The notes below the pieces were generated by a model. The model saw only the letters and a list, made by a program, of their open reading frames with translations. It was not told where the DNA came from and searched no databases. From the NCBI RefSeq assembly GCF_000003605.2, contig NW_003106597.1, positions 427,320 to 491,319 on the forward strand: a stretch of DNA of 64,000 nucleotides. Direction: 5' to 3'. The DNA is from Saccoglossus kowalevskii. Lineage: Eukaryota > Hemichordata > Enteropneusta > Harrimaniidae. Within the stretch, counting starts at the first letter, position 1. Each line of letters opens with the position of its first letter. Shown here one piece after another: positions 4,720 through 63,735 of this stretch. The translations under genes and the position numbers were made by a program.

Positions 4720-5610
4720 TTGTATGTGGCAAATGCAGTGAGTATGCGACGCACAAGGTATCTGAGACCTCGGAAGAGGTTAACTGGAACTCGTATACTT
4801 TCACTTATTACTATATTGGGAGTCGGTTGGATTATGATCCTGTACTCTACATCTCAAGACCTTAGCAATATTGAAATGGAGAAGGCTGTGGCTTCGAATA
4901 ATTTACAAGACGATGTGTGGAACACGTGGAGTGCCAATTCAAGACATTTACTTGAGGAAACAACTATTGCATCAAATTCTGTTACCACGGAAGCAACGAC
5001 AGAGGTTGCAACAGTTCGTAAACAAGAGTATCCCCCTGATGCGTTTAGTTTAGAAGACCGACGGAAGGGAGCCGTCATTCTTCACACCTTTGGGCTTCTG
5101 TACATGTTTATTGCATTGGCAATCGTTTGTGACGAATTCTTTGTGCCGTCACTTGCTGTCATAACCGACAGACTCAAAATTTCTGATGATGTTGCCGGGG
5201 CAACATTCATGGCAGCAGGAGGGAGTGCTCCTGAACTTTTCACCAGTTTCTTCGGCTTGTTTGTTACCGCTAGTAACGTTGGTATATCAACAATCGTTGG
5301 TTCAGCCGTTTTCAACATACTATTTGTCATCGGTATGTGTGCTGTGTTCAGCCATGGTGTTCTACAGCTAACATGGTGGCCTCTCTTCAGGGATGTCTTT
5401 TTCTACAGTCTTAGTCTTATTGTTCTGATTATAGCTTTTGACAACTCTTACATCGAATGGTTTGAATCACTGGCACTGTTGTCTGTGTATGCTCTATATG
5501 TCACCTTTATGAAGTTTAATTTCAGAGTTGAACGATTCGTCAAACGGAAACTCGATCATAACAAAGTTAGCAAAGTCTCTAGCCAAGAAGAACTTCAAAA
5601 ACGTGCAGAG
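4720..5610 (+). CDS. SLC24A1/2-like: K+-dependent Na+/Ca2+ exchanger (NCKX1/2 type), first coding exon
   Basis: Encodes residues 1-289 of a plasma-membrane exchanger that in this family swaps 4 Na+ for 1 Ca2+ plus 1 K+. The exon starts after the acceptor ...TTGCTTAG; the first ATG is at 4744 with A at -3, and the 24 bases before it are open, so an upstream start in another exon is not excluded. Seen: basic N-terminus (RPRKR), hydrophobic signal-anchor about 18-34, a Ser/Thr-rich extracellular segment about 35-95, then the conserved [14 protein letters not shown] (96-109), helices at about 110-129, 150-176, 180-203, 211-232 and 238-256, and the alpha-1 repeat with [10 protein letters not shown] (159-168) and [15 protein letters not shown] (178-192). 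Glu164 of GGSAPE corresponds to the ion-binding Glu188 of human NCKX2. It ends in phase 0 at CGTGCAGAG|GTAAGT. Having most of the N-terminal half in one exon behind a non-coding exon resembles the vertebrate SLC24A1/A2 genes. Without the donor, the frame would run 34 more codons to a stop at 5710-5712. Confidence 0.95.
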
Positions 5611-5616
5611 GTAAGT

Positions 5617-8600
5617 GGAATCAGTCATCTTAAACACAACTGCAATATTTTAACGATTAAAAATGTTCTGCACTGTATGACTCTACTTTTTACCTTTCAG
5701 AAAACTTTATAACCCTCCTCTCCCTCCCCCTAAAGAACCAACAGTTGTTGTAGACCTCTCATATATCAATTATAGCTGAGTAGGCATTGCCACTGAACCC
5801 TCATAGGTGTGGGCATATTTATAAATATTTATATTTATTGGTAGCAACAAAATCTGTACCATATTTATACTAAAGTATGAATTGTTATAACCCCTTTTTA
5901 TAACAAATACAATGTACCGATATATAACAATGCTAAGTATATACTTACCCTAATTTCTTGTTATTTTCAAAATACACATTATATATGAAAGTTTTATAAA
6001 TTATTATGTGAGATTGTGTATAATTAATAACTGTTTTAGATAAAAGACTGGTGTCTGATACATGATATAAAATACAATGTACGTTGAATAAGCGTGTTGA
6101 GGAAAACCCAAATAGAAAATGTTTACTTACTATGACAATTTTTATATCTAATTTTTTTTTTTTCAAAAATTGGATTCCCACTTATATCTAAAATCCTGAA
6201 AAATGGGATTCATTACATCACCACATCCTCAGTAGGTAATTTATAATCTAAGCTTCCCTCGGGATCACTAGTGGTTTTATCATGACACATGTAATGGATC
6301 AAAATGAAAAAAAAAAAATGGCACTGTGACTGAACGGGTAAATTTTCAAATCGATGTATGAGATTTACGATACATGTTTCAAAAAGTGAAATGAAAATCT
6401 GAAGGGTTCCATCTCGCTATGATATTTGTACTACGATGGCTATAATTTGCATGAAATCTACTTGATAAGCAATGATGTCTATTTCCCTGAGGTAGACCTC
6501 TTTCCTCATCTGTAATCAATATCACTTTCTTGCTACAAAGCATTTCTCTGTCTTGGCAGCTTGACTTCAGACCTTGGGGGGATCATATTTGTATCCATAT
6601 ACATATATAGTATCTGATACGACAAAAGATGTTTTCAAAAACTTACCGGTATCTCTTGTTTGAAAAATGAACTGTACACTAGTGTATATAGACTTCTATT
6701 CAATGTTTATACTGGTTTATATTTGAGCCGTGACTGTCTCCGCTTGATCGACTTGCTGATCGTACATCAAACAGTTGTATTTCTTAGCTTTTTTAACTGT
6801 CAATGGTTTCAAATCAATATGTTGTCGGTAGTGGCATTTTTAATTAATTTTAATTTTATTTTGAAATGAAAAGTTCAGCAATTTAAAATACCTTTTTTTT
6901 GAAATCTAAGCTTCATTTTTATAATAAAAAGAATTGATCTGCCATTTGCACCAATTTTCATGGACAGGACTAAATAAAAAGTTGCGATCATAATCAACTC
7001 GTAGCAGCGACCGAAATCTAAATGATATCACTGGAGTGTGCTCGTAAAGGAAAACATTACAAGCACCCAGAGAAATAAAGCATGATCTGTTTTTCAAGGG
7101 TGTTAGGTAGCACTTCAACGCTTTGAGGTTACAAGTTAGCTTAACAAAATAGTGGAAAGGTTTAAAAACGTTTTATTCTACTGCGTGCATGGCTGTAGTC
7201 TTCAGAAGAATAAAAGCGCCCTCTTGTGTCTGAATACTGCCCTCTTGTGATAATATATATTGAAGTAACACATACTTTTTCATTGATAACACCATATGCT
7301 ACAATATTGGAGTTTTAATAGTGTAGATCAATAAGCGAATCGATTTGTTTTATTGAGTAATCCTGTCAGATGAACCTTTTAGCAGAAACTTTGATTTGTA
7401 ATATTCAGTCAGTAAAGGTAACCATTGGAGAAAAAATGAGTTGTTAAAAATTTATCTGTGACATTTGTACAGGACGTTCGTAATGCTTGTCGAGTACGAA
7501 ACAATCACATATAGGTTTTGCTTTATCTGCCTTTGTTTTATAACTTTGTCCAAATAACTACAGAAATGTAAAGTCTAATTCGTTATCATAGCATGTCTTT
7601 TACAAATGCCCTATGCGAGTCACAGACCATTCATTCCCTTGACTGAAAGTGTTTAAAAAAAGGTATTTTCAGGAGTCGGAATAGTCAGAAAAATACAATA
7701 AGCGAAGTTGGCCATCAGGTAAACATTGGTACAACATACATACTATCATATTCATCTATGTATAAGCTTTCAGATGATTTTAGGTTGTTTAACAGTATGC
7801 TTTAATACCGTAAAATCTGTATTAAAAGCTGCGGCTTTTAGTAAAATGCTAGAATGCAACAGATTCTATTAGAGCATCTACATTTATGAGAAATGATGAA
7901 TTTTTGGTTCTCAATTATTCAAAAAGAATGTGTGCAGCTTCTAATTAAGTATGCGGATTCTAATACAGATTTTATTGTAGTAACTTTTAGAGATCGTCTA
8001 AATCACAGATCGATGTGATTTCCCCCCTGCTACCACTTTAAAGACTAAATCGTAATCTATTCAATAGGCGGAAAAATATATAATTTGTTCGTTTTTTGAA
8101 AGAAAAAAAAATTGTATAAATTACAGATTAATCAATATTTTTAAAAGCAATTTATGCATTTTCTCTGTATCAGTGGCAATAATAATTTTTTTTTTTTTTT
8201 CAAATGTGAAAATAAAACAACCTTTTAGTCACTTCCTGTTGGAAATAATAATCCTCTTTAATATAACCTTCACATGCACCTCGTTCTCCAGACCCGAGAG
8301 AAGGGATCTATGGCCTTCCATTACTGTACCCTCCCTTTCAAGGCTGTCTTTATTGCACCTATGTATACAGTGACAAAAAGGTTCAAGACCCAGAGATTAA
8401 AAAAAAAAGTAAATGTTAGTTTTAACAACAGCTTTCAAGGATATAATTCAGACTTGCAATAGCTTTTGACGCTGACATCCTGGTTTGTAGTGCTAATGTC
8501 AGCTGACATCAGTGGATAGGTATACTTCGTATGTGCAACTAGAATTCTGATTGATTTTCTTCAGACTATAGTTACGAATGAGCTTCTATTGTGTTGCGTA

Positions 8601-9676: not shown

Positions 9677-10094
9677 TTTTTAGCTCCGCTGTCGACTTTG
9701 TCGAGCGAAGTCTATCATATGAGTGATTGACTGTCGTCGTCGTGTCAACAACTTTTTTACTTTTTCGACTTCTTCTTGAAAACTACAAGCCTGATTGCTT
9801 TGATACTTGGTGTATATGTACCTTGGGCAGACCTCTCTTAGATTTGTTGATTTCATGATGATATTTTTAATTCTTTAATCTTGGTGAATATTTTTGTAAT
9901 TTTTGGTAAAAAGTGATATTTTCGACTTCTTGTTAAAAACCGCAAATCTGATTGCTGTGATACTATACATATAGGTAGATACCTCAGATAGACCTCTCTC
10001 AGATTTGTTCATTTTCCAATGATGTTTTCAGTTCTTTAATTGAAATGTGCATTGCTGCTAACAGTGGAGCTATCTCAGCCGAGAGGCTGCTTGT
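9677..10094 (+). mobile_element. H1 tandem-core Helentron-like element, copy 1
   Basis: 5' end TTTTTAGCTCCGCTGTCGAC; 3' end AACAGTGGAGCTATCTCAGCC followed by GAGAGGCTGCTTGT. The 5' arm TAGCTCCGCTGT is matched, inverted and subterminal, by ACAGTGGAGCTA, then a CAGCC/GGCTG hairpin and CTTGT. The interior holds about two monomers of a roughly 157-164-bp unit containing TTCGACTTCTTG, CCTCTCTCAGATTTGTTCAT and GTGAATATTTTTGT. No ORF. The asymmetric inverted ends with a terminal hairpin follow the plan known for Helentron/Helitron2 non-autonomous elements; tandem cores of about 160 bp are known from the oyster pearl elements. The family assignment is inference. Confidence 0.7.
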
Positions 10095-23024: not shown

Positions 23025-23933
23025 TTTTTAGCTCTGCTGTCGACAAAGTCGACACAACGGAGCTGTTCATATTACTGATTGTCCGTTGCTGTTGTCAACT
23101 TTACAACTCAGAATGTTTTCAAATTTAATATGCAAGTACCTTGGATGGTTCTTTCTCTGATTTGTTCATTTCATGTCAAAATCTCAAATTCTCTATTTTT
23201 GGTGAATATTTTTGTTATTTTTGGTAAAAAGTGATATTTTCGACTTCTTGTAAAAAACCGCAAGTCCAATTGCTTTGATATTACATGTATAGGTACTACA
23301 TGTGGACCTCTCTCAGATTTGTTCATTTCGTGATGATATCTTTTATTCTCTAATTTTGATGAATATTTTTGTCATTTTTGGTAAAAAGTGATATTTCCGA
23401 CTTCTTGTAAAAAACGGCAAGTCTGATTGCTTTGATATTACATATATACTAGGTAGGTACTACATGTAGACCTCTCTCAGATTTGTTCATTTCGTGATGA
23501 TATCTTTTATTCTCTAATTTTGATGAATATTTTTGTCATTTTTGGTAAAAAGTGATATTTTCGACTTCTTGTTAAAAACCGCAAGTCTAATTGCTTTGAT
23601 ATTACATATATAGGTACAACATATGGACCTCTCTCTGATTTGTTCATTTTGTGATGATATCTTTAATTCTCTAATTTTGGTGCATATTTTTGTAATTTTT
23701 TGTAAAAAGTTATATTTTCGACTTCTTGTTAAAAACTGCAAGTTGAATTGCTTTGATATTATGCATATAGGTACCACATGTGGACCTCTCTCAGATTTTG
23801 TCATTTCATGATGATATCTTCCATTCTCCAATTTTGGTGAATATTTTTGTTATTTTTGGTGAAAAGAAAAGTTCTTGAATTGAAATGTGCATTGCTAACA
23901 GTGGAGCTATGTCAGCCGACTGGCTGCTTGTTT
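23025..23933 (+). mobile_element. H1 tandem-core Helentron-like element, copy 2
   Basis: 5' end TTTTTAGCTCTGCTGTCGAC followed by an AAA-centred palindrome (GTCGACAAAGTCGAC). Four to five core monomers follow; the GTGATATTTTCGACTTC landmark recurs at 23231, 23388, 23552 and, as GTTATATTTTCG, at 23709, giving periods of 157, 164 and 157. The 3' end is AACAGTGGAGCTATGTCAGC then CGACTGGCTGCTTGTTT. No coding capacity; a 105-codon frame at 23514-23831 minus is repeat-derived. Confidence 0.8.
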
Positions 23934-24516: not shown

Positions 24517-24731
24517 TAGTGTAAAATACTTTATTTTAGCTGGAATTAATTTTAGCTTAAAAGACTTTTTTGGGGTATTTTGTTTGGAGTTTATTTTCAC
24601 TGATTGTTGACGAGTTGAATGTAAAATATAGGAAAAAAGGTATATTTGCCGGATTTTATTTTCACAGTATCATTCCTTCAGCAAAAATAGCGAAAATTAG
24701 TGCAAAGTGAAAATAAAGTATTTTACTGTAT
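24517..24731. mobile_element. TA-flanked palindromic MITE, full copy
   Basis: The left end TAGTGTAAAATACTTTATTT and the right end AATAAAGTATTTTACTGTA are inverted repeats, and inner arms (TAGCTGGAATTAATTTT / AAAATTAGTGC) extend the pairing. Length about 215 bp, with TA at both edges as in Tc1/mariner-type insertions. Aligns with 55127-55337 and 62037-62250. Confidence 0.75.
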
Positions 24732-24832
24732 TTATGATGACATGGCAAGTAATCATATGAATATAATGCTTGGTTGATCCACCCCAATATCCTGAATTTG
24801 TTTAAGCTTCTGAGTGCTTTCAGTCAGTTTTA

Positions 24833-25978: not shown

Positions 25979-27860
25979 TGTATAGACCAGTGTTCTTGAG
26001 AGTTATAGTGGATATAGACCAGTGTTCATGTGAGTTATACTGGATATAGACCAGTGTTCTTGTGAGTTTTATCGGGTATAGACCAGTGTTCTTGTGAGTT
26101 ATACTGGATATAGACCAGTGTTCTTGTGAGTTATAGTGGATATAGACCAGTGTTCATGTGAGTTATACTGGATATAGACCAGTGTTCTTGAGAGTTATAC
26201 GGGATATAGACCAGTGTTCTTGTGAGTTATACTGAGTAGAGACCAATGTTCTTGTGAGTTATACTGGATATAGACCAGTGTTCTTGTGAGTTATACTGGA
26301 TATAGACCAGTGTTTTTGTGAGTTATACTGAGTAGAGACCAATGTTCTTGTGAGTTATACTGGATATAGACCAGTGTTCTTGTGAGTTATACTGGGTCTA
26401 GATAGACCAGTGTTCTTGTGAGTTATACTGGGTATAGATAGACCAGTGTTCTTGTGAGTTATACTGGATATAGACCAGTGTTTTTGTGAGTTATACTGAG
26501 TAGAGACCAATGTTCTTGTGAGTTATACTGGATATAGACCAGTGTTCTTGTGAGTTATACTGGGTCTAGATAGACCAGTGTTCTTGTGAGTTATACTGGG
26601 TATAGATAGACCAGTGTTCTTGTGAGTTATACTGGATATAGACCAGTGTTCTTGTGAGTTATATTTGGTATAAACCAGTGTTCTTGTGAGTTATACTGGA
26701 TATAGACCAGTGTTCTTGTGAGTTATACTGGATATAGACCAGTGTTCATGTGAGTTATACTGGATATAGACCAGTGTTCTTGAGAGTTATACAGGATATA
26801 GACCAGTGTTCTTGTGAGTTATACTGGATATAGACCAGTGTTTTTGTGAGTTATACTGAGTAGAGACCAATGTTCTTGTGAGTTATACTGGATATAGACC
26901 AGTGTTCTTGTGAGTTATACTGGGTCTAGATAGACCAATGTTCTTGTCAGTTATACTGGGTCTAGATAGACCAGTGTTCTTGTGAGTTATACTGGGTATA
27001 GATAGACCAGTGTTCTTGTGAGTTATACTGGATATAGACCAGTGTTCTTGTGAGTTATATTTGGTATAAACCAGTGTTCTTGTGAGTTATACTGGATATA
27101 GACCAGTGTTCTTGTGAGTTATACTGGATATAGACCAGTGTTCTTGTGAGTTATACTGGATATAGACCAGTGTTCATGTGAGTTATACTGGATATAGACC
27201 AGTGTTCTTGAGAGTTATACGGGATATAGACCAGTGTTCTTGTGAGTTATACTGGATATAGACCAGTGTTTTTGTGAGTTATACTGAGTAGAGACCAATG
27301 TTCTTGTGAGTTATACTGGATATAGACCAATGTTCTTGTGAGTTATACTGGATATAGACCAGTGTTCTTGTGAGTTATACTGGATATAGACCACTGTTCT
27401 TGTGAGTTATACTGAGTAGAGACCAATGTTCTTGGTAAGTTATACTGGATATAGACCAGTGTTCTTGTGAGTTATACTGGATATAGACCAGTGTTCTTGT
27501 GAGTTATACTGGATATAGACCAGTGTTCTTGTGAGTTATACTGAGTAGAGACCAATGTTCTTGGTAAGTTATACTGGATATAGACCAGTGTTCTTGTGAG
27601 TTATACTGAGTAGAGACCAGTGTTCTTGTGAGTTATACTGGATATAGACCAGTGTTCTTGTGAGTTATACTGGATATAGACCAATGTTCTTGTGAATTAT
27701 ACTGGATATAGACCAATGTTTTTGTGAGTAATACTGGTTATAGACCAGTGTTGTTGTGAGTTATACTGGATATAGACCAGTGTTCTTGTGAGTTATACTG
27801 GATATAGACCAGTGTTGTTGTGAGTTAAACTGGGTATATAGACAAGTGTTCTTGTATGTT
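25979..27860. repeat. 32-bp minisatellite array
   Basis: About 58 copies of a 32-bp unit containing TATAGACCAGTGTTCTTGTG and AGTTATACTGG. Variant units include GAGTAGAGACCAAT (31 bp), GGTCTAGATAGACC (36 bp) and TTTGGTATAAACC. Variant order repeats: TTTGGTATAAACC recurs 396 bp apart (26664, 27060) and the GGTCTAGATAGACC block recurs near 26390 and 26561, so higher-order units have been duplicated. Confidence 0.95.
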
Positions 27861-29182: not shown

Positions 29183-29850
29183 CGAGATTCAGAATCTGAT
29201 GCCATAATTCACAGAATCTGTACCTGTGTTCCCAGAATCTGATGCCATATATCCCAGATTCTGTACCTGTGTTCCCAGAATCTGATACCATATCCCCAGA
29301 ATGTGATGCCATATTCCCTGAATATGATACCATATTCCCAGAATCTGATGCCATATTCCCAGAATCTGATGCCATATTCCCAGAATATGAAGCCATATTC
29401 CCAGAATATGCCATAATCCTAGAATTCGATGCTATATTCCCAGAATCTGATGCCATATTCCGAGAATCCGATGCTATATTCCCAGAATCTGATGCCATAA
29501 TTCCCGGAATCTGTACCTGTGTGTTCCCAGAATTTGATGCTATATTCCCAGATTCTGATGCCATATTCCCAGAATCCGATGCTATATTCCCAGAATGTGC
29601 CATAATACCAGAATTTGATGCTATATTCCTATAATCTGATGCCATATTTCCGGAATCTAATGCTATATTCCTATAATCTGATGCCATATTCCCCGAATCT
29701 GATGCCATATTCCCAGAATATGATGCCATAATCCTAGAATTTGATGCTATATTCCCAGAATCTGATGCCATATTCCCAGAAGCTGATGCTATATTCCCAG
29801 AATCTGATGCCATATTCCCAGAATCTGATCCCATATTCTCAGAATCTCAC
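29183..29850. repeat. 21-bp minisatellite, frame-preserving
   Basis: About 30 copies of a 21-bp unit, CCAGAATCTGATGCCATATT plus C, with variants such as CTGTACCTGTGTTCC. As 21 is a multiple of three, the same frame stays open: the minus strand reads a SGNMASD-type heptad for 238 codons (29118-29834), the plus strand FPESDAI for 130 codons (29242-29634). Two open strands point to unit composition, not coding selection. Confidence 0.93.
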
Positions 29851-30198: not shown

Positions 30199-30863
30199 TT
30201 TTTTTAGCCCCGCTGTCGACAAAGTTGACGCAGCAAAGCTGTTCATATTACTGATTGACCGTCGTCGTCTGATTGCTTTCATATTGTATATATAGGTACT
30301 GCATGTGAACCTCTCTCAGATTTGTTCATTTTGTGATGATATCTTTAGTTCTCTAATTTTGGTGAATATTTTGTCATTTTTGGTAAAAAGTGATATTTTC
30401 GACTTCTTGTTAAAAACTGTAAGTCTGCTGCTTTGCTATTACCGGTATATATATATATATAGGTAAAACATGTGGACCTCTCTCAAATTTGTTCATTTTG
30501 TGATGATATCTTCAATTCTCCAATTTTGGTGAATATTTGTGTCATTTTTGGTAAAAAGTGATATTTTCGACTTCTTGTTAAAAACTGTAAGTCTGCTGCT
30601 TTGCTATTACCGGTATATTTATATATAGGTAAAACATGTGGACCTCTCTCAAATTTGTTCATTTTGTGATGATATCTTCAATTCTCCAATTTTGGTGAAT
30701 ATTTGTGTCATTTTTGGTGAAAAGTGATATTTTCGAATTCTTGTTGAAAACAGAAAGTCTGATTGCTTTGATACTATACACATTGTTCATTTTCTAATGA
30801 TATCTTCTGTTCTTTAATTGAAATGTGCAGTGCTAACAGCAGAGCTATCTTAGGCTGCTTGTT
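30199..30863 (+). mobile_element. H1 tandem-core Helentron-like element, copy 3
   Basis: 5' end TTTTTTAGCCCCGCTGTCGAC-type followed by AAAGTTGACGCAGC; about three and a half core monomers (GTGATATTTTCGACTTCTTG near 30389, 30559 and 30726). The 3' end AACAGCAGAGCTATCTTAGG then CTGCTTGTTT has lost part of the hairpin. Two of its monomers each carry TACCGGTA next to short AT runs (30440 and 30608), so these two octamers share one origin. Confidence 0.75.
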
Positions 30864-36382: not shown

Positions 36383-36599
36383 TATTAACTTATTATTAAT
36401 TTTAACACCATTATATCCTATCCTAGCATTCAAAAGATGTGACTGCACCGCAGTAAGGTTCATTATATTTTTGTGGCAGGGCACCAGAGATATTTTTATG
36501 ATATTAGTAACGTATGCACAGGTGTCAAAATAAGTTATATTCCGATGATTCAATAATCAACAAATGTGATTTTTGGTTTAATCTAAAATATAACTATAT

Positions 36600-36722
36600 A
36601 AGTTTTTCCCTATATGTCACATTCAACTCGTAAAAAAATTAGTGAAAATAAATTCCATACAAAACACCCAAAAAGTCTTTTCAGCGAAAACTAATTCTGG
36701 CTAAAATAAAGTATTTTACAGT
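36600..36722. mobile_element. TA-MITE half copy
   Basis: Only the right half of the MITE: AGTGAAAATAAATTCCATAC, AAAACACCCAAAAAGTC, TTTTCAGCGAAAACTAATTC and AAATAAAGTATTTTACAGTA. It matches the right half of 55127-55337 and the fragment at 59578-59697. Confidence 0.65.
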
Positions 36723-37163
36723 ATATGAGATTCTAAAAAAGCAGATATGGTGCAACCCTGTTCTTCCCTGTCATGAAATGGAATGGTCCTACACTGTGGA
36801 GTTGAAACGTACTATATAAGAGGGGTTAAAAAGGCCAAGTAATTTCAGATATCAGATTAATAATATTTGTTAAGAGCCAATAATTGTCATCATGGGATTT
36901 CTTCATTGTCTAGTTTAATAGCATTATGGTATGAGAGAATTCTGGGTATGACCCCAATATTGCAACTGACGCCTCCATTGTTTATCTGCCTTAGGGACGT
37001 TGATGTTTTCACGTTTTTAACTTATTTTTTCCCCGTTTAAATATAGTGCAAAATTCAAAAGATGAGTTTTTGTTATCATTTCTGTTTTCAATGAGCAGTC
37101 AAATGTCATCTTCAAAGATTACAGTTTTTAACAGGTTGACCATTTAAGTGTCATTGTCAATCT

Positions 37164-47056: not shown

Positions 47057-48832
47057 CCTGAACCCACATCCTCCCTGAAGTGAGAACCCACATTCTCCCT
47101 GAAGTGAACCCACATTCTCCCTGAAGTGAACCCACATTCTTCCTGAAGTGAACCCACATTCTTCCTGAAGTGAGAACCCACATTCTCCCTGAAGTGAACC
47201 CACATTCTCCCTGAAGTGAACCCACATTCTTCCTGAAGTGAGAACCCACATTCTTCCTGAAGTGAACCCACATTCTCCCTGAAGTGAACCCACATTCTCC
47301 CTGAAGTGAGAACCCACATTCTTCCTGAAGTGAACCCACATTCTCCCTGAAGTGAACCCACATTCTCCCTGAAGTGAACCCACGTTCTTCCTGAAGTGAA
47401 CCCACGTTCTCCCTGAAGTTAACACACGTTCTCCCTGAAGTGAACCCACGTTCTCCCTGAAGTGAACCCACATTCTTCCTGAAGTGAGAACCCACATTCT
47501 CCCTGAAGTGAACCCACATTCTCCCTGAAGTGAACCCACATTCTTCCTGAAGTGAGAACCCACATTCTTCCTGAAGTGAACCCACATTCTCCCTGAAGTG
47601 AACCCACATTCTCCCTGAAGTGAGAACCCACATTCTTCCTGAAGTGAACCCACATTCTCCCTGAAGTGAACCCACATTCTCCCTGAAGTGAACCCACGTT
47701 CTTCCTGAAGTGAACCCACGTTCTCCCTGAAGTTAACACACGTTCTCCCTGAAGTGAACCCACGTTCTCCCTGAAGTGAACCCACATTCTACCTGAAGTG
47801 AACCCACATTCTTTCTGAAGTGAACCCTCATTCTCCCTGAAGTGAACCCACGTTCTCCCTGAAGTGAACCCACATTCTCCCTGAAGTGAACCCATGTTCT
47901 CCCTGAAGTGAACCCACATTCTACCTGAAGTGAACCCACATTCTACCTGAAGTGAACCCACATCCTCCCTGAAGTGAACCCACATTCTATCTGAAGTAAA
48001 CCCACGTTCTCCCTGAAGTGAACCCACATCCTCCCTGAAGTGAACCCACATTCTCCCTGAAGTGAACCCATGTTCTCCCTGAAGTGAACCCACATTCTAC
48101 CTGAAGTGAACCCACATTCTCTCTGAAGTGAACCCTCATTCACCCTGAAGTGAACCCACATTCTCCCTGAAGTAAACCCACGTTCTCCCTGAAGTGAACC
48201 CACATTCTCCCTGAAGTGAACCCACATTCTCCCTGAAGTGAACCCACGTTCTTCCTGAAGTGAACCCACGTTCTCCCTGAAGTTAACACACGTTCTCCCT
48301 GAAGTGAACCCACGTTCTCCCTGAAGTGAACCCACATTCTACCTGAAGTGAACCCACATTCTTTCTGAAGTGAACCCTCATTCTCCCTGAAGTGAACCCA
48401 CGTTCTCCCTGAAGTGAACCCACATTCTCCCTGAAGTGAACCCATGTTCTCCCTGAAGTGAACCCACATTCTACCTGAAGTGAACCCACATTCTACCTGA
48501 AGTGAACCCACATCCTCCCTGAAGTGAACCCACGTTCTCCCTGAAGTGAACCCACATTCTCCCTGAAGTGAACCCACGTTCTCCCTGAAGTGAACCCACA
48601 TTCTCCCTGAAGTGAACCCACATTCTCCCTGAAGTGAACCCACATTCTACCTGAAGTGAACCCACATCCTACCTGAAGTGAACCCACATCCTCCCTGAAG
48701 TGAATCCACGTTCTTTCTGAAGTGAACCCACGTTCTCCCTGAAGTGAACCCACATTCTCCCTGAAGTGAACCCATGTTCTCCCTGAATTGAACCCACATT
48801 CTCCCTGAAGTGAACCCACATCCTCCCTGAAG
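47057..48832. repeat. 22-bp minisatellite array with higher-order structure
   Basis: About 80 copies of a 22-bp unit, CCCTGAAGTGAACCCACATT plus CT, with 24-bp variants (GTGAGAACCC) in the left third and point variants (GTT, TAC, TCC, TTT). A rare variant GAAGTTAACACACG recurs at 47415, 47729 and 48279, that is 314 and 550 bp apart; a 207-bp stretch at 47733-47939 is repeated at 48283-48489. As 22 is not a multiple of three, a frame reads three consecutive units as a 22-residue minus-strand period (WVHFREN, VGSLQGE, CGFTSGR), so long stretches of all three minus frames stay open. No gene is claimed. Confidence 0.95.
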
Positions 48833-49627: not shown

Positions 49628-50516
49628 TTAGTTCCCGTTCGGATGCAGTCCGAAAACGAGGACTTATGTTTTGACCTCCGTGTGTCTGTGCGTGCATGCA
49701 TGTGTGCGTGCGTCCAGACCTGTATCTTAGAAATGCCTGGACCAATCACAATCAAACTTCACACATCCATCATACATGATATTATACATATGCACGTCAA
49801 TTTGTTTCATAATCTGATTCAAGATGGCCGAATGGTGGCCATTTTTGTGCTAAAAATCATCAAAATCAAGCATTTCTCAGCTGTTTACAGATGGATTTTG
49901 TTCAAACTTGGTATATACATTAGACATTATGGGACCTTGATGCAAATAATTTTATTTTTCAGATAAGATTCAAAATGGCCGACTGGCAGCCATTTTTTAT
50001 TAATGAATTGTTCTCGTGCCATATCTCTGACTTGCTTTCACTGATTATGTTCAAATATATTGGTTCGACTATCCTATTCAAAATGGCCGAATGGTGATCA
50101 TTTTTGTGCTAAAAAATCATCAAATATCAAGCATTTATGGGTGGATTTCATTCAAACTTTTTATTTTTCAGATTGGATTCAAAATGGCTGACTGGCGGCC
50201 ATTTTGTTTTAATGATTGGGCTTCTAGAGCCATATCTCTTAAATGCTTTGACTTATTATATTTAAATTTTATATATTCGTTATACATCATGTTATATATA
50301 TACATGTATTCAAAATGGCTGATTTTGAATGCTGTTCCAGAGCAATATCTCTCAATATGGACAAGTACTTGTTTGACGATCAGATACAAATGTCAATCAT
50401 TTTAATGTTAAAAAATCATATTCCTGCCATGATTATATTCCAGCTATATTACTATAAACAAACTATATATCTTAAATTTGATAACTAACGAGGACTGTGC
50501 CATGCATGGCTTGTTT
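49628..50516 (+). mobile_element. H2 tandem-core Helentron-like element, copy 1
   Basis: 5' end TTAGTTCCCGTTCGGATGCAG; 3' end AACTAACGAGGACTGTGCC then ATGCATGGCTTGTTT. The core repeats TTCAAAATGGCCGACTGGC / GGCCATTTT blocks separated by TTCAAACTTGGTATATA- and CATATCTCT-type segments. The 3' end forms a GCCATGCATGGC hairpin followed by TTGTTT, and the inverted arms AGTnCCCGTT / AACGnGGACT sit at the 5' end and just inside the hairpin. Aligns with 58608-59580. Its open frames (104-107 codons) are not genes. Confidence 0.75.
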
Positions 50517-55126: not shown

Positions 55127-55337
55127 TACTGTAAAATACTTTATTTTGCTTAGAATTAATTTTCGCTATTTTCGCTGCAGCAATGATTCAGTGAAAATAA
55201 AATCCAGCGAATATACCTCTTTTTCTATATTTTACATTCAACTTGTCAAAAAACAGTGAAAATAAATTCCATACAAAACACCAAAAAAGTCTTTTCAGCA
55301 AAAATTAATTCCAGCTAAAATAAAGTATTTTACAGTG
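55127..55337. mobile_element. TA-flanked palindromic MITE, full copy
   Basis: TACTGTAAAATACTTTATTT at the left and AAATAAAGTATTTTACAGTG at the right; inner blocks TTTTCGCTGCAGCAATGATT and CAAAAAAGTCTTTTCAGC. It lies 24 bp upstream of H1 copy 4. Confidence 0.78.
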
Positions 55338-55360: not shown

Positions 55361-56193
55361 TTTTTAGCTTCGCTGTTGACAAAGTCAACACAGCGGAGCT
55401 GTTTATATTACTGATTGTCCATCGTCATCAACTTTACAATTTCAACTTCTTCTTTGAAACCGCAAGTCAGAATGTTTTCGAATTTGATATGCAAGTACCT
55501 TGGATGGTTCTTTCTCAGATTTGTTCATTTCATGTCAAAATCTTGAATTCTCTATTTTGGTGAATATTTTTGTCATTTTTTTGTAATAAGTGATATTTTA
55601 GACTTTTTGTTAAAAACAGTAAGTTCGATTGCATATAGGTACTGCATGTCGACCTCTCTCAGATTTGATCATTTCATGATATCTTTAATTCTCTAATTTT
55701 GGTGAATATTTTTGTCATTTTTGGTAAAATGTGATACTTTCGACTTCTAGTAAAAAACGGCATGTCTGATTGCTTTGATATTACATATATAGGTACTCCA
55801 TATGGACTTCTAGCAGATTTGTTCATTTTGTGATGACATCTTCAATTCTTCAATTTTGATGAATATTTTTGTCATTTTTGGTAAAAAGTGATATTTTCGA
55901 CTTCTTGTAAAAAACGGCAAGTGAGATTGCTTTGATATTACATATATAGGTACTACATGTGGATCTCTCCCAGACTTGTTCATTTCATGATGATATCTTT
56001 AATTCTCTAATTTTGATTATTATTTTTGTAATTTTTGGTAAAAAAAATATATTTTCGACTTCTTGTTAAAAACCGCAAGTCTGATTACTTTGATACTATA
56101 CATATTGTTCATTTTCTAATGATGTCTTCAGTTCTTAATTGAAATGTGCATAGCTAAAAGCGAAGCTATCTCAGCCGTCAGGCTGCTTGTTTT
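55361..56193 (+). mobile_element. H1 tandem-core Helentron-like element, copy 4
   Basis: 5' end TTTTTAGCTTCGCTGTTGAC with the palindrome GTTGACAAAGTCAAC; about five core monomers; 3' end AAAAGCGAAGCTATCTCAGC then CGTCAGGCTGCTTGTTT. The 5' arm TAGCTTCGCT and the 3' arm AGCGAAGCTA pair perfectly even though both differ from the other copies. Confidence 0.8.
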
Positions 56194-58607: not shown

Positions 58608-59291
58608 TTAGTGCCCGTTCGGGCGCAGTCTGTGTCTTAGAAATGCCTGGACTAATCACAATCAAACTGCACACATACATCATACATGATATTATACATA
58701 TGCACATCAATTTGTTTCACGATCTGATTCAAGATGGCCGAATGGCGGCCATTTTTGTGCTAAAAATCATCAAAATCAAGCATTTTTCGGCTGTTTACAG
58801 ATGGATTTTGTTCAAAATTGGTATATATGTTACACATTATAGGACCTTGATGCACATCATTTTGTTTTTCCGATAAGATTCAAAATGGCCGACTGGCGGC
58901 CATTTTGTTTTAATGAATGTGGTTCTAGACCCATATCTCCGACTTGTTTTGACTGATTATGTTCAAATTTTAAATATTCATTATTTATCATGTCATAGAT
59001 AGACAGATATATTGGTTTGAAGATCCTATTCAAAATAGCCGAATGGAGGTCATTTTTGTGCTGAAAAAATCCTCGAATATCAAACATTTCTTGCATTTAT
59101 GGATGGATTTTGTTCAAACTTATAACACACGTTAGACATTACAGGTTCCTGATGCATGTCATTTTATTTTTCAGATTTTATTCAAAATAGCTGACTGGCG
59201 GCCATTTTGTTTTAATGATTGGGCTTCTAGAGCCATATCTCTCAAATGCTTTAACTGATTATATTCAAATTTTATATATTTGTTATACATC

Positions 59292-59372
<81 letters not shown>

Positions 59373-59580
59373 TCAAAATGGCTGATTTTGAATGCTGTTC
59401 CAGAGCAATATCTCTCAATATGGACAAGTACTTGTTTGACGATCAGAAACAAATGTCACTCATTTTAATGTTAAAAAACCATATTCCTGACATGGTTATA
59501 TTCCAGCTATATTACTATAAACATAACTATATATCTTAAATTTGATAACTAACGGGGACTGTGCCATGCATGGCTTGTTT
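58608..59580 (+). mobile_element. H2 tandem-core Helentron-like element, copy 2
   Basis: 5' end TTAGTGCCCGTTCGGGCGCAG, itself a GCCCGTTCGGGC hairpin; 3' end AACTAACGGGGACTGTGCC then ATGCATGGCTTGTTT. The core carries several TTCAAAATGGCCGACTGGC / GGCCATTTTGTTTTAATGA units. It lacks the GT-rich stretch that copy 1 has near its 5' end and has a 70-bp AT microsatellite where copy 1 has a short TATATATATAC. No gene. Confidence 0.8.
59295..59364. repeat. (AT)n microsatellite inside H2 copy 2
   Basis: About 35 AT units at the site that in H2 copy 1 (50286-50302) is only a few units long; frames read through it (IYIYIY) are meaningless. Confidence 0.95.
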
Positions 59581-59697
59581 TCATACATTTCACATTAAAC
59601 TCATCAAAAATCAGTGAAAATAAATTCCATACAAAACACCCAAAAAGCCTTTTCAGCGAAAATTAATTCCAGCGAAAATAAAGTATTCCACAGTATG
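59581..59697. mobile_element. TA-MITE half copy abutting H2
   Basis: The right half of the MITE (AGTGAAAATAAATTCCATAC ... AAATAAAGTATTCCACAGTA) starts immediately after the TTGTTT end of H2 copy 2. The missing left half is not found before the H2 5' end. Confidence 0.65.
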
Positions 59698-61340: not shown

Positions 61341-61555
61341 TGAAGATGTGCTTCTAATAAAGTAAATACAGTATTCCTTATTTGTACTTCATACCTCCAA
61401 TACTCTCAACACACAAGAGTTCTTTCTAAGCTTTCTTTGATTTTTATTGAATGTGTAGAATGGAAGCGTAAAGTGCCAAAGTTAATGTGCAGTTTTAAAT
61501 GAATTATTTAAGTTATAAATTTCAGCCAATTAATTTGTTTTTGTCTACTTCTCAG

Positions 61556-62016
61556 GAGAACTTCAGGAAAAAGCAGTCAAATTGCAGGAATTAGCAACAA
61601 AAAGTGACGATGAAGAAAAAGGTGATGAAACAGTTAAGGAGAATGTTCCTGGGTCTCAATTACCCCAAAATGGCAATGGTGTTGCCCTGGGTAGCGGTAA
61701 CCGTAACAACTATGCATCTACAGTTTCAATAATTAATGCTGAACAGTTACCTGAGCAATGTACTCCACCGTGCCAAAGTTATTCAAACGAGACTGTGACC
61801 AGCCCCGAAGCCAGCGAAATCAAGCAACATCGACAGTCACAGGATGCGTCATCAAATACAACGCAAATCACCACATTGGAAACACCGCTAGATGCTCCCA
61901 GGGATACCTCTCCTGTTACAAACTTACATGCAAGTACACAAAGTGATCAAGTTCAAGCTGGTGAGGGTGCTGCCACTGAATTCAGCAGAACCGGCACGAT
62001 AGATGCTATCTCACAG
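61556..62016 (+). CDS. SLC24A1/2-like: NCKX exchanger, variable cytosolic-loop exon
   Basis: The acceptor is TTGTCTACTTCTCAG. Two bases complete codon 327 (AGA) and then ELQEKAVKLQELATKSDDEE follows, giving residues 328-480. The start resembles the conserved helix after the HTIDP block; the rest is Ser/Thr/Gln/Asn-rich low-complexity sequence (for example SNETVTSPEASEIKQHRQSQ) with no domain, as expected for the poorly conserved loop of NCKX1/2 proteins. It ends in phase 0 at TCACAG|GTATTT, a weaker donor than the others. Assignment rests on frame, flanking splice sites and position. Confidence 0.85.
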
Positions 62017-62036
62017 GTATTTTACTTGAATTGATA

Positions 62037-62250
62037 TTCTGTTAACTATTTTATTTTAGCTGGAATTTATTTTCGCTGAATAGACTTTTCGGGTGTTTGT
62101 ATTGAATTTATTTTCACTGATTTTTGAAGAGTGGAAAGTAAAATATATTAAAAAAAAGTCTATTCGCTGGATTTTATTTTCACTGAATCATTCCTTCAGC
62201 AAAAATAGCGAAAATTAATTCCAAGTGAAAATAAAATATTTAACCGTATA
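62037..62250. mobile_element. TA-MITE, full copy beside a splice donor
   Basis: Left CTGTTAACTATTTTATTTTAG, inner TTTTCGCTGAATAGACTTTT and CCTTCAGCAAAAATAGCG, right AAATAAAATATTTAACCGTA. It begins about 20 bp after the donor of the 61556-62016 exon and takes up a quarter of the 810-bp intron. Confidence 0.68.
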
Positions 62251-62964: not shown

Positions 62965-63387
62965 GTAAGTATATTAAGTCCTTATTTGGGCATTACATTA
63001 CCATATATGGTAACATGGAATAAAAATAAAATGGAGTAATTCTTCGGATCAGTGGCTCCCACATGCACTATAAACGCAAGGGTTGCCGTAGCAACAGAAT
63101 CCTAGGGGAAACTTTCATTATTTTGTTAAATAATATATAATGTGATGATAAAAGTTAAAATTCTTCAAAAGTTCAATAAACTAGTTAAATGGTCTCAGAT
63201 TAAACAATCACCATATTAGCTTGTTTGGTAGACGTGCATCTTCAATAAAAACACATGTAAACAGCAGTTGTATTGTTTACTGCATCATTAAAATATGACT
63301 TATTTTCACCAAAGACACGCCTCGATAATCTACGTAATAAATAGATAAGTTGCATAATATTCCTTTTGTTTTTTTATGTTTTTGCAG
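62965..63387 (+). other. Short intron
   Basis: A 423-bp phase-0 intron with donor GTAAGT and acceptor TTTTTATGTTTTTGCAG. It contains an X-box-like GTTGCCGTAGCAAC at 63082-63095. Confidence 0.85.
63082..63095. promoter_or_regulatory. X-box-like site (possible RFX site)
   Basis: GTTGCCGTAGCAAC, with half-sites GTTGC and GCAAC perfectly inverted; inside the last complete intron. Confidence 0.35.
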
Positions 63388-63507
63388 GAAAAAAGGAAAT
63401 GGTTTGCAATCACCTTTTTAGGTAGCATATTGTGGATAGGTATATATGCGTATTTCATGTTGTGGTTTGCTGAACAAATCGGCGAGACAATCGGTATACC
63501 AGATGTG
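63388..63507 (+). CDS. SLC24A1/2-like: NCKX exchanger, next helix and start of alpha-2 repeat
   Basis: Forty codons (residues 527-566), phase 0 at both ends (TTTTTGCAG| and GTG|GTAAGT). EKRKWFAITFLGSILWIGIY / AYFMLWFAEQ is a membrane helix, and IGETIGIPDV is the lead-in to the alpha-2 repeat, which in the family continues VMGLT.LA.GTS.PD. The alpha-2 core, with its ion-binding aspartates, and the C-terminus lie beyond the window. The last seen codon is GTG (V566). Confidence 0.94.
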
Positions 63508-63545
63508 GTAAGTTATTATGATGAGTATACCCAACGACTTCACAG

Positions 63546-63735
63546 GCAGCCCTCGCTGCGTCAATGTCTAAACTCAGTAGTTGCAGCCCCCGCTGCCTCT
63601 ACCCATAACCTCTTAACTTCATGCAGCCCCCGCTGCATAACCATGGTGTAGCCGCAGCACTCGCTGCCTATACTTTACAGTTGCAGTCATGCTGCAATCT
63701 GCCATTCCATACTAACATCATGCAGCTATGCTGCA
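63546..63735. repeat. Cluster of six GCAGC/GCTGC hairpins
   Basis: Six short palindromes at 27-40-bp spacing: GCAGCCCTCGCTGC (63546-63559), then the same form at 63583-63596, 63623-63636 and 63654-63667, then TTGCAGTCATGCTGCAA-type at 63681-63696 and TGCAGCTATGCTGCA at 63721-63735. The stem is kept while loop and flanks differ. It begins about 40 bp after the exon donor. An AATAAA lies at 63918-63923. It could be part of a mobile element, for example a solo terminal repeat, but no ends or target duplications were found. Confidence 0.7.

What the first reader, a model, noticed from the sequence alone, without database searches (positions are those of the whole stretch)
58608..59580. H1 and H2 share one end grammar despite different sequences
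Both begin TTAG-plus a 5' arm, place the inverse of that arm just inside the 3' end (ACAGTGGAGCTA in H1, AACGGGGACTG in H2), then a hairpin (CAGCC..GGCTG; GCCATGCATGGC) and finish TTGTTT. Two unrelated tandem arrays wearing the same mobilisation signals suggest one transposase family that can capture and spread satellites. This is the best candidate here for an under-described system.
Basis: partly seen in the sequence, partly recalled or inferred. Interest (0 to 1): 0.7.

Follow-up and report, generated by a model that had tools for sequence, protein, structure and literature searches.

The report
Satellite-carrying non-autonomous Helentron transposons (HINEs)
The two repeat families are ordinary members of a known class of rolling-circle jumping genes that carry blocks of tandem repeats around animal genomes, so the shared end pattern is real but already described.

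Summary
H1 (unit about 157-167 bp; four copies in the window) and H2 (two copies, one at 58608-59578) share an end layout: a 5' arm followed by its inverse; central repeats; the inverse arm again near the 3' end; a short palindrome; TTGT. It is not chance: the H2 3' end occurs 1153 times and the H1 3' end 3586 times in the 572-Mb source genome, with 0 matches to the reversed patterns. Two H2 insertions have uninterrupted counterpart sites, with no target duplication beyond an ambiguous TT. These are published features of HINEs, non-autonomous Helentrons, which are known to carry unrelated satellite-like arrays (PMC4067079, PMC7492417). The genome also encodes Helentron-type Rep, PIF1 and endonuclease domains at one locus, but no Rep locus could be tied to H1 or H2 ends. 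"Under-described system" is not supported; "one transposase family" is plausible at superfamily level only. One lead remains: contig C1873 has an exact H2 3' end 4.2 kb downstream of a related Rep, without an H2 body.

The parts
58608..59578 (+). H2 copy b (the finding): HINE-like element TTAG...TTGT, degenerate ~151-bp unit array, (TA)n, 5' inverted repeat and microsatellite missing
   Evidence: genome copies
49628..50514 (+). H2 copy a: 5' arm and inverted repeat, microsatellite, core, 3' subTIR and palindrome
49630..49664 (+). H2 5' subTIR plus its inverted repeat (terminal hairpin)
   Evidence: -7.2 kcal/mol, 6 of 200 shuffles fold as well; genome copy L027 -15.3 kcal/mol, 0 of 200
49679..49713 (+). 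left-flank microsatellite (CGTG-type) of H2 copy a
59551..59578 (+). H2 3' subTIR AACGGGGACT, palindrome GCCATGCATGGC, end TTGT
   Evidence: 579 + 574 genome matches with up to 3 mismatches; reversed control 0
50487..50514 (+). same 3' end in H2 copy a (one mismatch)
23028..23931 (+). H1 copy b: 5' module B, ~157-bp units, 3' end
30204..30862 (+). H1 copy c: 5' module B, ~166-bp units; 3' palindrome partly lost
55364..56190 (+). H1 copy d: 5' module B, ~157-bp units
9680..10094 (+). H1 copy a: 5' module A (GTCGACTTTGTCGAG), short body
55366..55400 (+). H1 5' subTIR plus inverted repeat (terminal hairpin, module B)
   Evidence: -11.5 kcal/mol, 0 of 200 shuffles
23898..23931 (+). H1 3' subTIR ACAGTGGAGCTA, palindrome CAGCCGACTGGCTG, end TTGT
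   Evidence: 1437 + 2149 genome matches to the consensus with up to 3 mismatches; reversed control 0

Best explanation
H1 and H2 are two HINE families (Helentron-associated interspersed elements, i.e. non-autonomous Helentrons). Each consists of a 5' terminal hairpin made of the subterminal inverted repeat (subTIR) and its inverse, a short microsatellite, a central array of satellite-like units, the inverse subTIR, a 3' palindrome and TTGT. They sit in T-rich sites without target-site duplication, apart from an ambiguous TT. Inferred, not shown: a Rep-helicase-endonuclease supplied in trans by an autonomous Helentron nicks at the 5' end, copies one strand by rolling circle, stops at the 3' palindrome and pastes the single strand into a TT site; unit number changes by slippage or recombination. 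Shown: anatomy, copy number, T-rich flanks, two empty sites, and Helentron-type Rep, PIF1 and endonuclease domains in the genome.
For: Anatomy and copies. Copy number: 1153 H2 3' ends, 3586 H1 3' ends, 1015 H2-type 5' hairpins, reversed controls all 0 (100 places listed in each). Empty sites: L028 and L016, both H2 inside the same MITE-like repeat, whose uninterrupted copies lie at window 55167-55281, 24575-24689 and 62096-62207 and in other loci; cutting out TTAG...TTGT restores the repeat to within one or two bases in a T-run that itself varies between copies. T-rich flanks. Strong folding of most 5' ends. Head-to-tail H2-H2 junction in L005 and an H1 inside an H1 in L056. Helentron proteins on C2261: Rep motif YRVEFQQCGSPHTH (Helentron-type S before P according to PMC4067079), PIF1 and Exo_endo_phos E 5e-12 in adjoining open frames. 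Layout in print.
Against: No autonomous element with H1 or H2 ends was found. If H2 is parsed as TTAG...TTGT, its 5' neighbour is A in 15, T in 10 and G in 4 of 29, so the exact cut point is ambiguous. The arms do not visibly co-vary (5' arm against 3' arm, permutation p 0.72). The H1 5' end at 9680 folds weakly (23 of 200 shuffles as good), and the four 3' ends folded are not clearly better than shuffles (11, 33, 66 and 80 of 200).
Confidence: 0.93

Rival explanations
1. Canonical Helitrons (5' TC, 3' CTRR, insertion between A and T).
For: 3' hairpin; no clear target-site duplication; A precedes TTAG in 15 of 29 H2 copies.
Against: Ends are TTAG or AG and TTGT, not TC and CTRR; there are subterminal inverted repeats; H1 5' ends have T at positions -1 to -3 in 19 of 19.
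Confidence: 0.03
2. Foldback or MITE-type cut-and-paste elements with terminal inverted repeats.
For: Inverted arms at both ends; the related bivalve Pearl element was once called a MITE (PMC7492417 passage).
Against: Arms are asymmetric (the 3' arm lies about 20 nt inside the end, before a palindrome); no duplication longer than TT at two empty sites.
Confidence: 0.03
3. Chance or low-complexity resemblance of two unrelated satellites.
For: AT-rich window; arms of only 10-12 bp.
Against: Thousands of genome copies with 0 in reversed controls; 3 strict hits against a mean of 0.1 in simulated strands.
Confidence: 0.01

Closest known systems
Cg_HINE elements of Crassostrea gigas (PMC7492417)
   Same: subTIR, inverted repeat and often GTCY/GTCC-type microsatellite in the left flank; central satellite-like array; subTIR plus palindrome in the right flank; T-rich sites, no target-site duplication; different arrays on related flanks (group 2); autonomous partner not identified there either
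   Different: No sequence comparison with the published Cg_HINE consensus sequences was possible here; the species of this window was not identified
HINE-Mo, DINE-1 and autonomous Helentrons (PMC4067079)
   Same: subTIRs, 3' palindrome, T-rich insertion with ambiguous Ts; [quoted passage not shown]
   Different: There the non-autonomous families were tied to autonomous partners; here not
Pearl elements of bivalves (named in a passage of PMC7492417; identity with CvA recalled)
   Same: satellite-like units between conserved ends; unit size of about 160 bp is recalled
   Different: Sequence not compared

Membership tests
HINE (non-autonomous Helentron) | 11-15 bp subterminal inverted repeats, the 3' one inside the end | tested here: met
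   H2 AGTCCCCGTT / AACGGGGACT (10 bp as scored; often one or more mismatches); H1 TAGCTCCGCTGT / ACAGCGGAGCTA
HINE (non-autonomous Helentron) | inverted repeat next to the 5' subTIR | tested here: met
   lost in some copies, e.g. 58608
HINE (non-autonomous Helentron) | short microsatellite in the left flank | tested here: met
   GTGTGTCCGTGCG-type in most H2 copies; GTCCGTCGTCGTC in H1 module B; H1 module A not examined for it
HINE (non-autonomous Helentron) | 3' palindrome after the subTIR | tested here: met
   folding not clearly better than shuffles
HINE (non-autonomous Helentron) | T-rich/TT insertion site without target-site duplication | tested here: met
   two empty sites, L028 and L016, to within one or two bases; net TT ambiguous as in print
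HINE (non-autonomous Helentron) | no coding capacity | tested here: met
   longest open stretch inside any of the six copies 124 aa; six open frames in or overlapping three copies have no Pfam match near a curated cut-off (best E 0.022)
HINE (non-autonomous Helentron) | autonomous Helentron partner with matching ends | tested here: inconclusive
   Helentron-type Rep, PIF1 and EN on C2261 but its ends were not found; C1873 lead not contiguous
canonical Helitron | 5' TC and 3' CTRR ends, A|T insertion | tested here: not met

The most novel reading that the evidence does not exclude
Contig C1873 of this genome holds the decayed autonomous partner of H2: a Rep related to the C2261 Helentron (69577-70236) and the start of a PIF1 helicase (71005-71280) on the same strand as an exact H2 3' end (74421-74448) that is preceded by ORF-like DNA instead of an H2 body. 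This would link a satellite-carrying HINE family to its driver, a link reported as unresolved in the oyster.
Probability: 0.2. Interest if true: 0.45.

Novelty: new member of a known kind. Interest (0 to 1): 0.22.

Why it matters
It shows in another, unidentified genome that satellite-like arrays ride on non-autonomous Helentrons. It adds two families, each with more than a thousand 3' ends, whose ends are modular: H1 keeps its array and 3' end with either of two 5' modules, and an H2-type 5' hairpin also heads a different 284-bp array (one well-read example). The open question, which enzyme moves them, is narrowed to a few loci.

Tried and rejected
H1/H2 end signals near the 8 PF14214 (Rep) hits, in the twelve stretches of about 10 kb held around them: only an H1 3' end in L044 and an H1-like 3' end in L049, neither placed as the end of the Rep element. 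Ends of the C2261 Helentron: the scan met one hairpin and no candidate pair, and the 3' side runs into an N gap. C1873: no H2 5' end in 67700-69600 and no helicase or endonuclease match by tblastn in 71270-73255, although by eye the helicase runs on for about 150 bp in another frame; so Rep and the H2 3' end are not shown to be one element. Only 100 of the 1153 H2 3' ends are listed, so most Rep contigs could not be checked this way.

Co-variation of the arms (some inverted-repeat rows there are mis-assigned where that part is deleted): 5' arm against the inverse of the 3' arm no better than permuted (206 of 230 positions, mean 206.5, p 0.72); inverted repeat equal to 3' arm in 9 of 28 copies (p 0.06; by position p 0.02); 5' arm against the neighbouring inverted repeat 196 of 230 (p 0.008). 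Common ancestry of the H1 and H2 5' ends: 20 of 37 identical, shuffle p 0.006 for the 33 positions after TTAG, but both are hairpins, which inflates it, and one arm alone gives p 0.21. Search of the paper library for six end strings: one paper, seen in the listing only, unrelated by its title. ORF-like pieces of L073: no Pfam match up to E 1 for four pieces, no PDB match for one piece. ARAGORN and Rfam on the window: 0 hits each.

Full report
What is there. The finding names two families. H2 is the element at 58608-59578 with a second copy at 49628-50514; H1 is the family with units of about 157-167 bp at 9680-10094, 23028-23931, 30204-30862 and 55364-56190. All six lie on the + strand. One H1 copy compared with one H2 copy shows no significant similarity. 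The longest open stretch inside any copy is 124 aa and six such frames have no convincing Pfam match.

End anatomy. Thirty H2 loci, one of them the window copy itself, were fetched from the source genome (73 matches listed, only 40 of 3578 first-look candidates scored, so a lower bound) and read at both ends. The full layout is TTAGTCCCCGTTCGGAC-GCA-GTCCGAAAACGGGGACT, then a GTGTGTCCGTGCG-type microsatellite, a core of degenerate repeats of about 151 bp, then AACGGGGACT, GTGCCATGCATGGC and TTGT; a number of copies lack part of the 5' end. For H1, 20 loci were taken at exact 3' ends, chosen from the 100 listed of 3586, so the 3' string is fixed by choice; after it come a palindrome and TTGT or close variants. 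At the 5' side 13 of 20 carry module A (TTAGCTCCGCTGTCGACTTTGTCGAGCGGAGCT or a variant), 1 of 20 module B (TTAGCTCCGCTGTYGACAAAGTYGACACAGCGGAGCT) and 6 of 20 show no recognisable 5' end within about 1.35 kb, four of these having gaps. The notebook figures of 14 and 5 are a miscount. In the window the 9680 copy has module A and the other three module B. A near-consensus H2 5' end (L027) folds at -15.3 kcal/mol with 0 of 200 shuffles as good; the window's H2 end at 49630 is weaker (-7.2, 6 of 200), H1 ends at 55366 and 23030 give 0 of 200, the 9682 end is not significant (23 of 200), and the four 3' ends tested give 11 to 80 of 200.

More than chance. Genome-wide the H2 3' end (28 nt, up to 3 mismatches) has 579 + 574 matches, the H1 3' end (22 nt, up to 3 mismatches) 1437 + 2149, and a generalised H2-type 5' hairpin (up to 1 mismatch) 485 + 530; the reversed patterns give 0 in every case. 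Inside the window a strict grammar scan gives 3 hits on one strand and 0 on the other, against 2 in 20 simulated strands; it misses three of the six copies because of mismatches.

Same ends, different arrays. One H2-type locus with a GAA loop (L071) keeps the hairpin and microsatellite but carries a different central repeat of 284 bp, 2.4 copies before a gap, 68% similar to H2 over the first 218 nt. A second GAA-type start, in L027 at 2556, has the same interior as L071 by eye. A third locus (L072) was cut by its contig end. This rests on one well-read example and one partial one.

Insertion. After the palindrome the sequence is TTGT, with the next base T in 26 of 30 H2 and 25 of 27 H1 ends. 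Before AG there are two Ts in 27 of 29 H2 ends and three in 19 of 19 H1 ends. Joining the flanks of 42 rows (L001 repeats the window copy; L056 enters twice with one 3' end) and comparing with all sequence then held gave two usable H2 empty sites, L028 and L016, both inside a MITE-like repeat with uninterrupted copies in the window. Cutting out TTAG...TTGT restores the repeat except for one missing C in L016 and T-run or C-run differences of one or two bases in L028, where the run also varies between the uninterrupted copies. Whether two Ts belong to the element or are a 2-bp duplication cannot be told, the same ambiguity as in print. L056 shows an H1 inside the 3' part of another H1, one base short at the junction and with other small differences nearby; L005 shows a head-to-tail H2 pair.

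Comparison with the literature. PMC4067079 (passages seen) describes Helentrons and HINEs by subTIRs, palindromes, T-rich sites without duplication, and a Rep motif with S before PHxH. PMC7492417 (abstract, passages and the second half of Results seen) describes 11 Cg_HINE elements in the Pacific oyster with subTIR, inverted repeat and microsatellite on the left, central satellite-like arrays, and subTIR plus palindrome on the right; group 2 there has related flanks with unrelated arrays, and the authors could not relate autonomous Helentrons to them. PMC12628747 and PMC11136912 (passages seen) describe satellite-like arrays in Helitron/Helentron elements. The finding therefore restates a known layout. 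The species was not identified; that it is a mollusc is only a guess.

The driver. Eight PF14214 matches exist in the genome. C2261 encodes Rep, PIF1 and an Exo_endo_phos domain in adjoining but separate open frames, with the Helentron-type Rep motif, so a Helentron was or is present. No H1 or H2 ends were found in the right places in the stretches held. A protein search added C1873:69577-70236, 37% identical to that Rep, on the same strand as an exact H2 3' end at 74421-74448. There only the last 70 bp or so match H2, and the kilobase before it is ORF-like, not H2. The helicase match stops at 71280, 71270-73255 has no helicase or endonuclease match by tblastn, and no H2 5' end lies in 67700-69600. 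With about one H2 3' end per Mb per strand and 14 Rep places on 13 contigs, a chance neighbour within 5 kb downstream has a probability of roughly 0.07 (own estimate). It is a lead, not a link.

Verdict. Observation confirmed with corrections; best explained as HINE rolling-circle transposition, shown for anatomy, copy number and sites, inferred for enzyme and process; novelty limited to new families.

Noticed in passing
window 47059-48832: 80-copy minisatellite of a 22-bp unit; read on the - strand its unit and right flank (GTACAGTGGTTAGCA...GTGGGTTCAC) look by eye like part of a tRNA-derived SINE, but ARAGORN finds no tRNA.
   Followed up: partly
window 4720-5709, 61534-62031, 63358-63648: Putative exons of a sodium/calcium exchanger gene on the + strand (PF01699 in the first; the other two have no Pfam match and are assigned by recall). 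All six H1/H2 copies would lie between them in the gene's sense orientation.
   Followed up: partly
window 24520-24735, 36596-36726, 55127-55335, 59578-59696, 62036-62249: MITE-like repeat (CAGCGAAAATAAATTCC...); H2 is inserted in copies of it in L028 and L016 and abuts one at 59578.
   Followed up: partly
whole genome: The H1 3' end is found 1437 times forward and 2149 times reverse, an asymmetry not seen for H2 and not explained.
   Followed up: no
L073 (C1873:73250-74380): ORF-like, frame-broken DNA directly before an exact H2 3' end; four pieces have no Pfam match up to E 1; nature unknown.
   Followed up: partly
L066, 3' flank of the H1 copy: An H2-type (GAA-loop) 5' end begins about 20 bp beyond an H1 3' end: neighbouring insertions of the two kinds.
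   Followed up: no
window 25981-27855 and 29190-29847: 32-bp and 21-bp minisatellites; the strict grammar scan, which misses half of the known copies, found no HINE-type ends there.
   Followed up: partly
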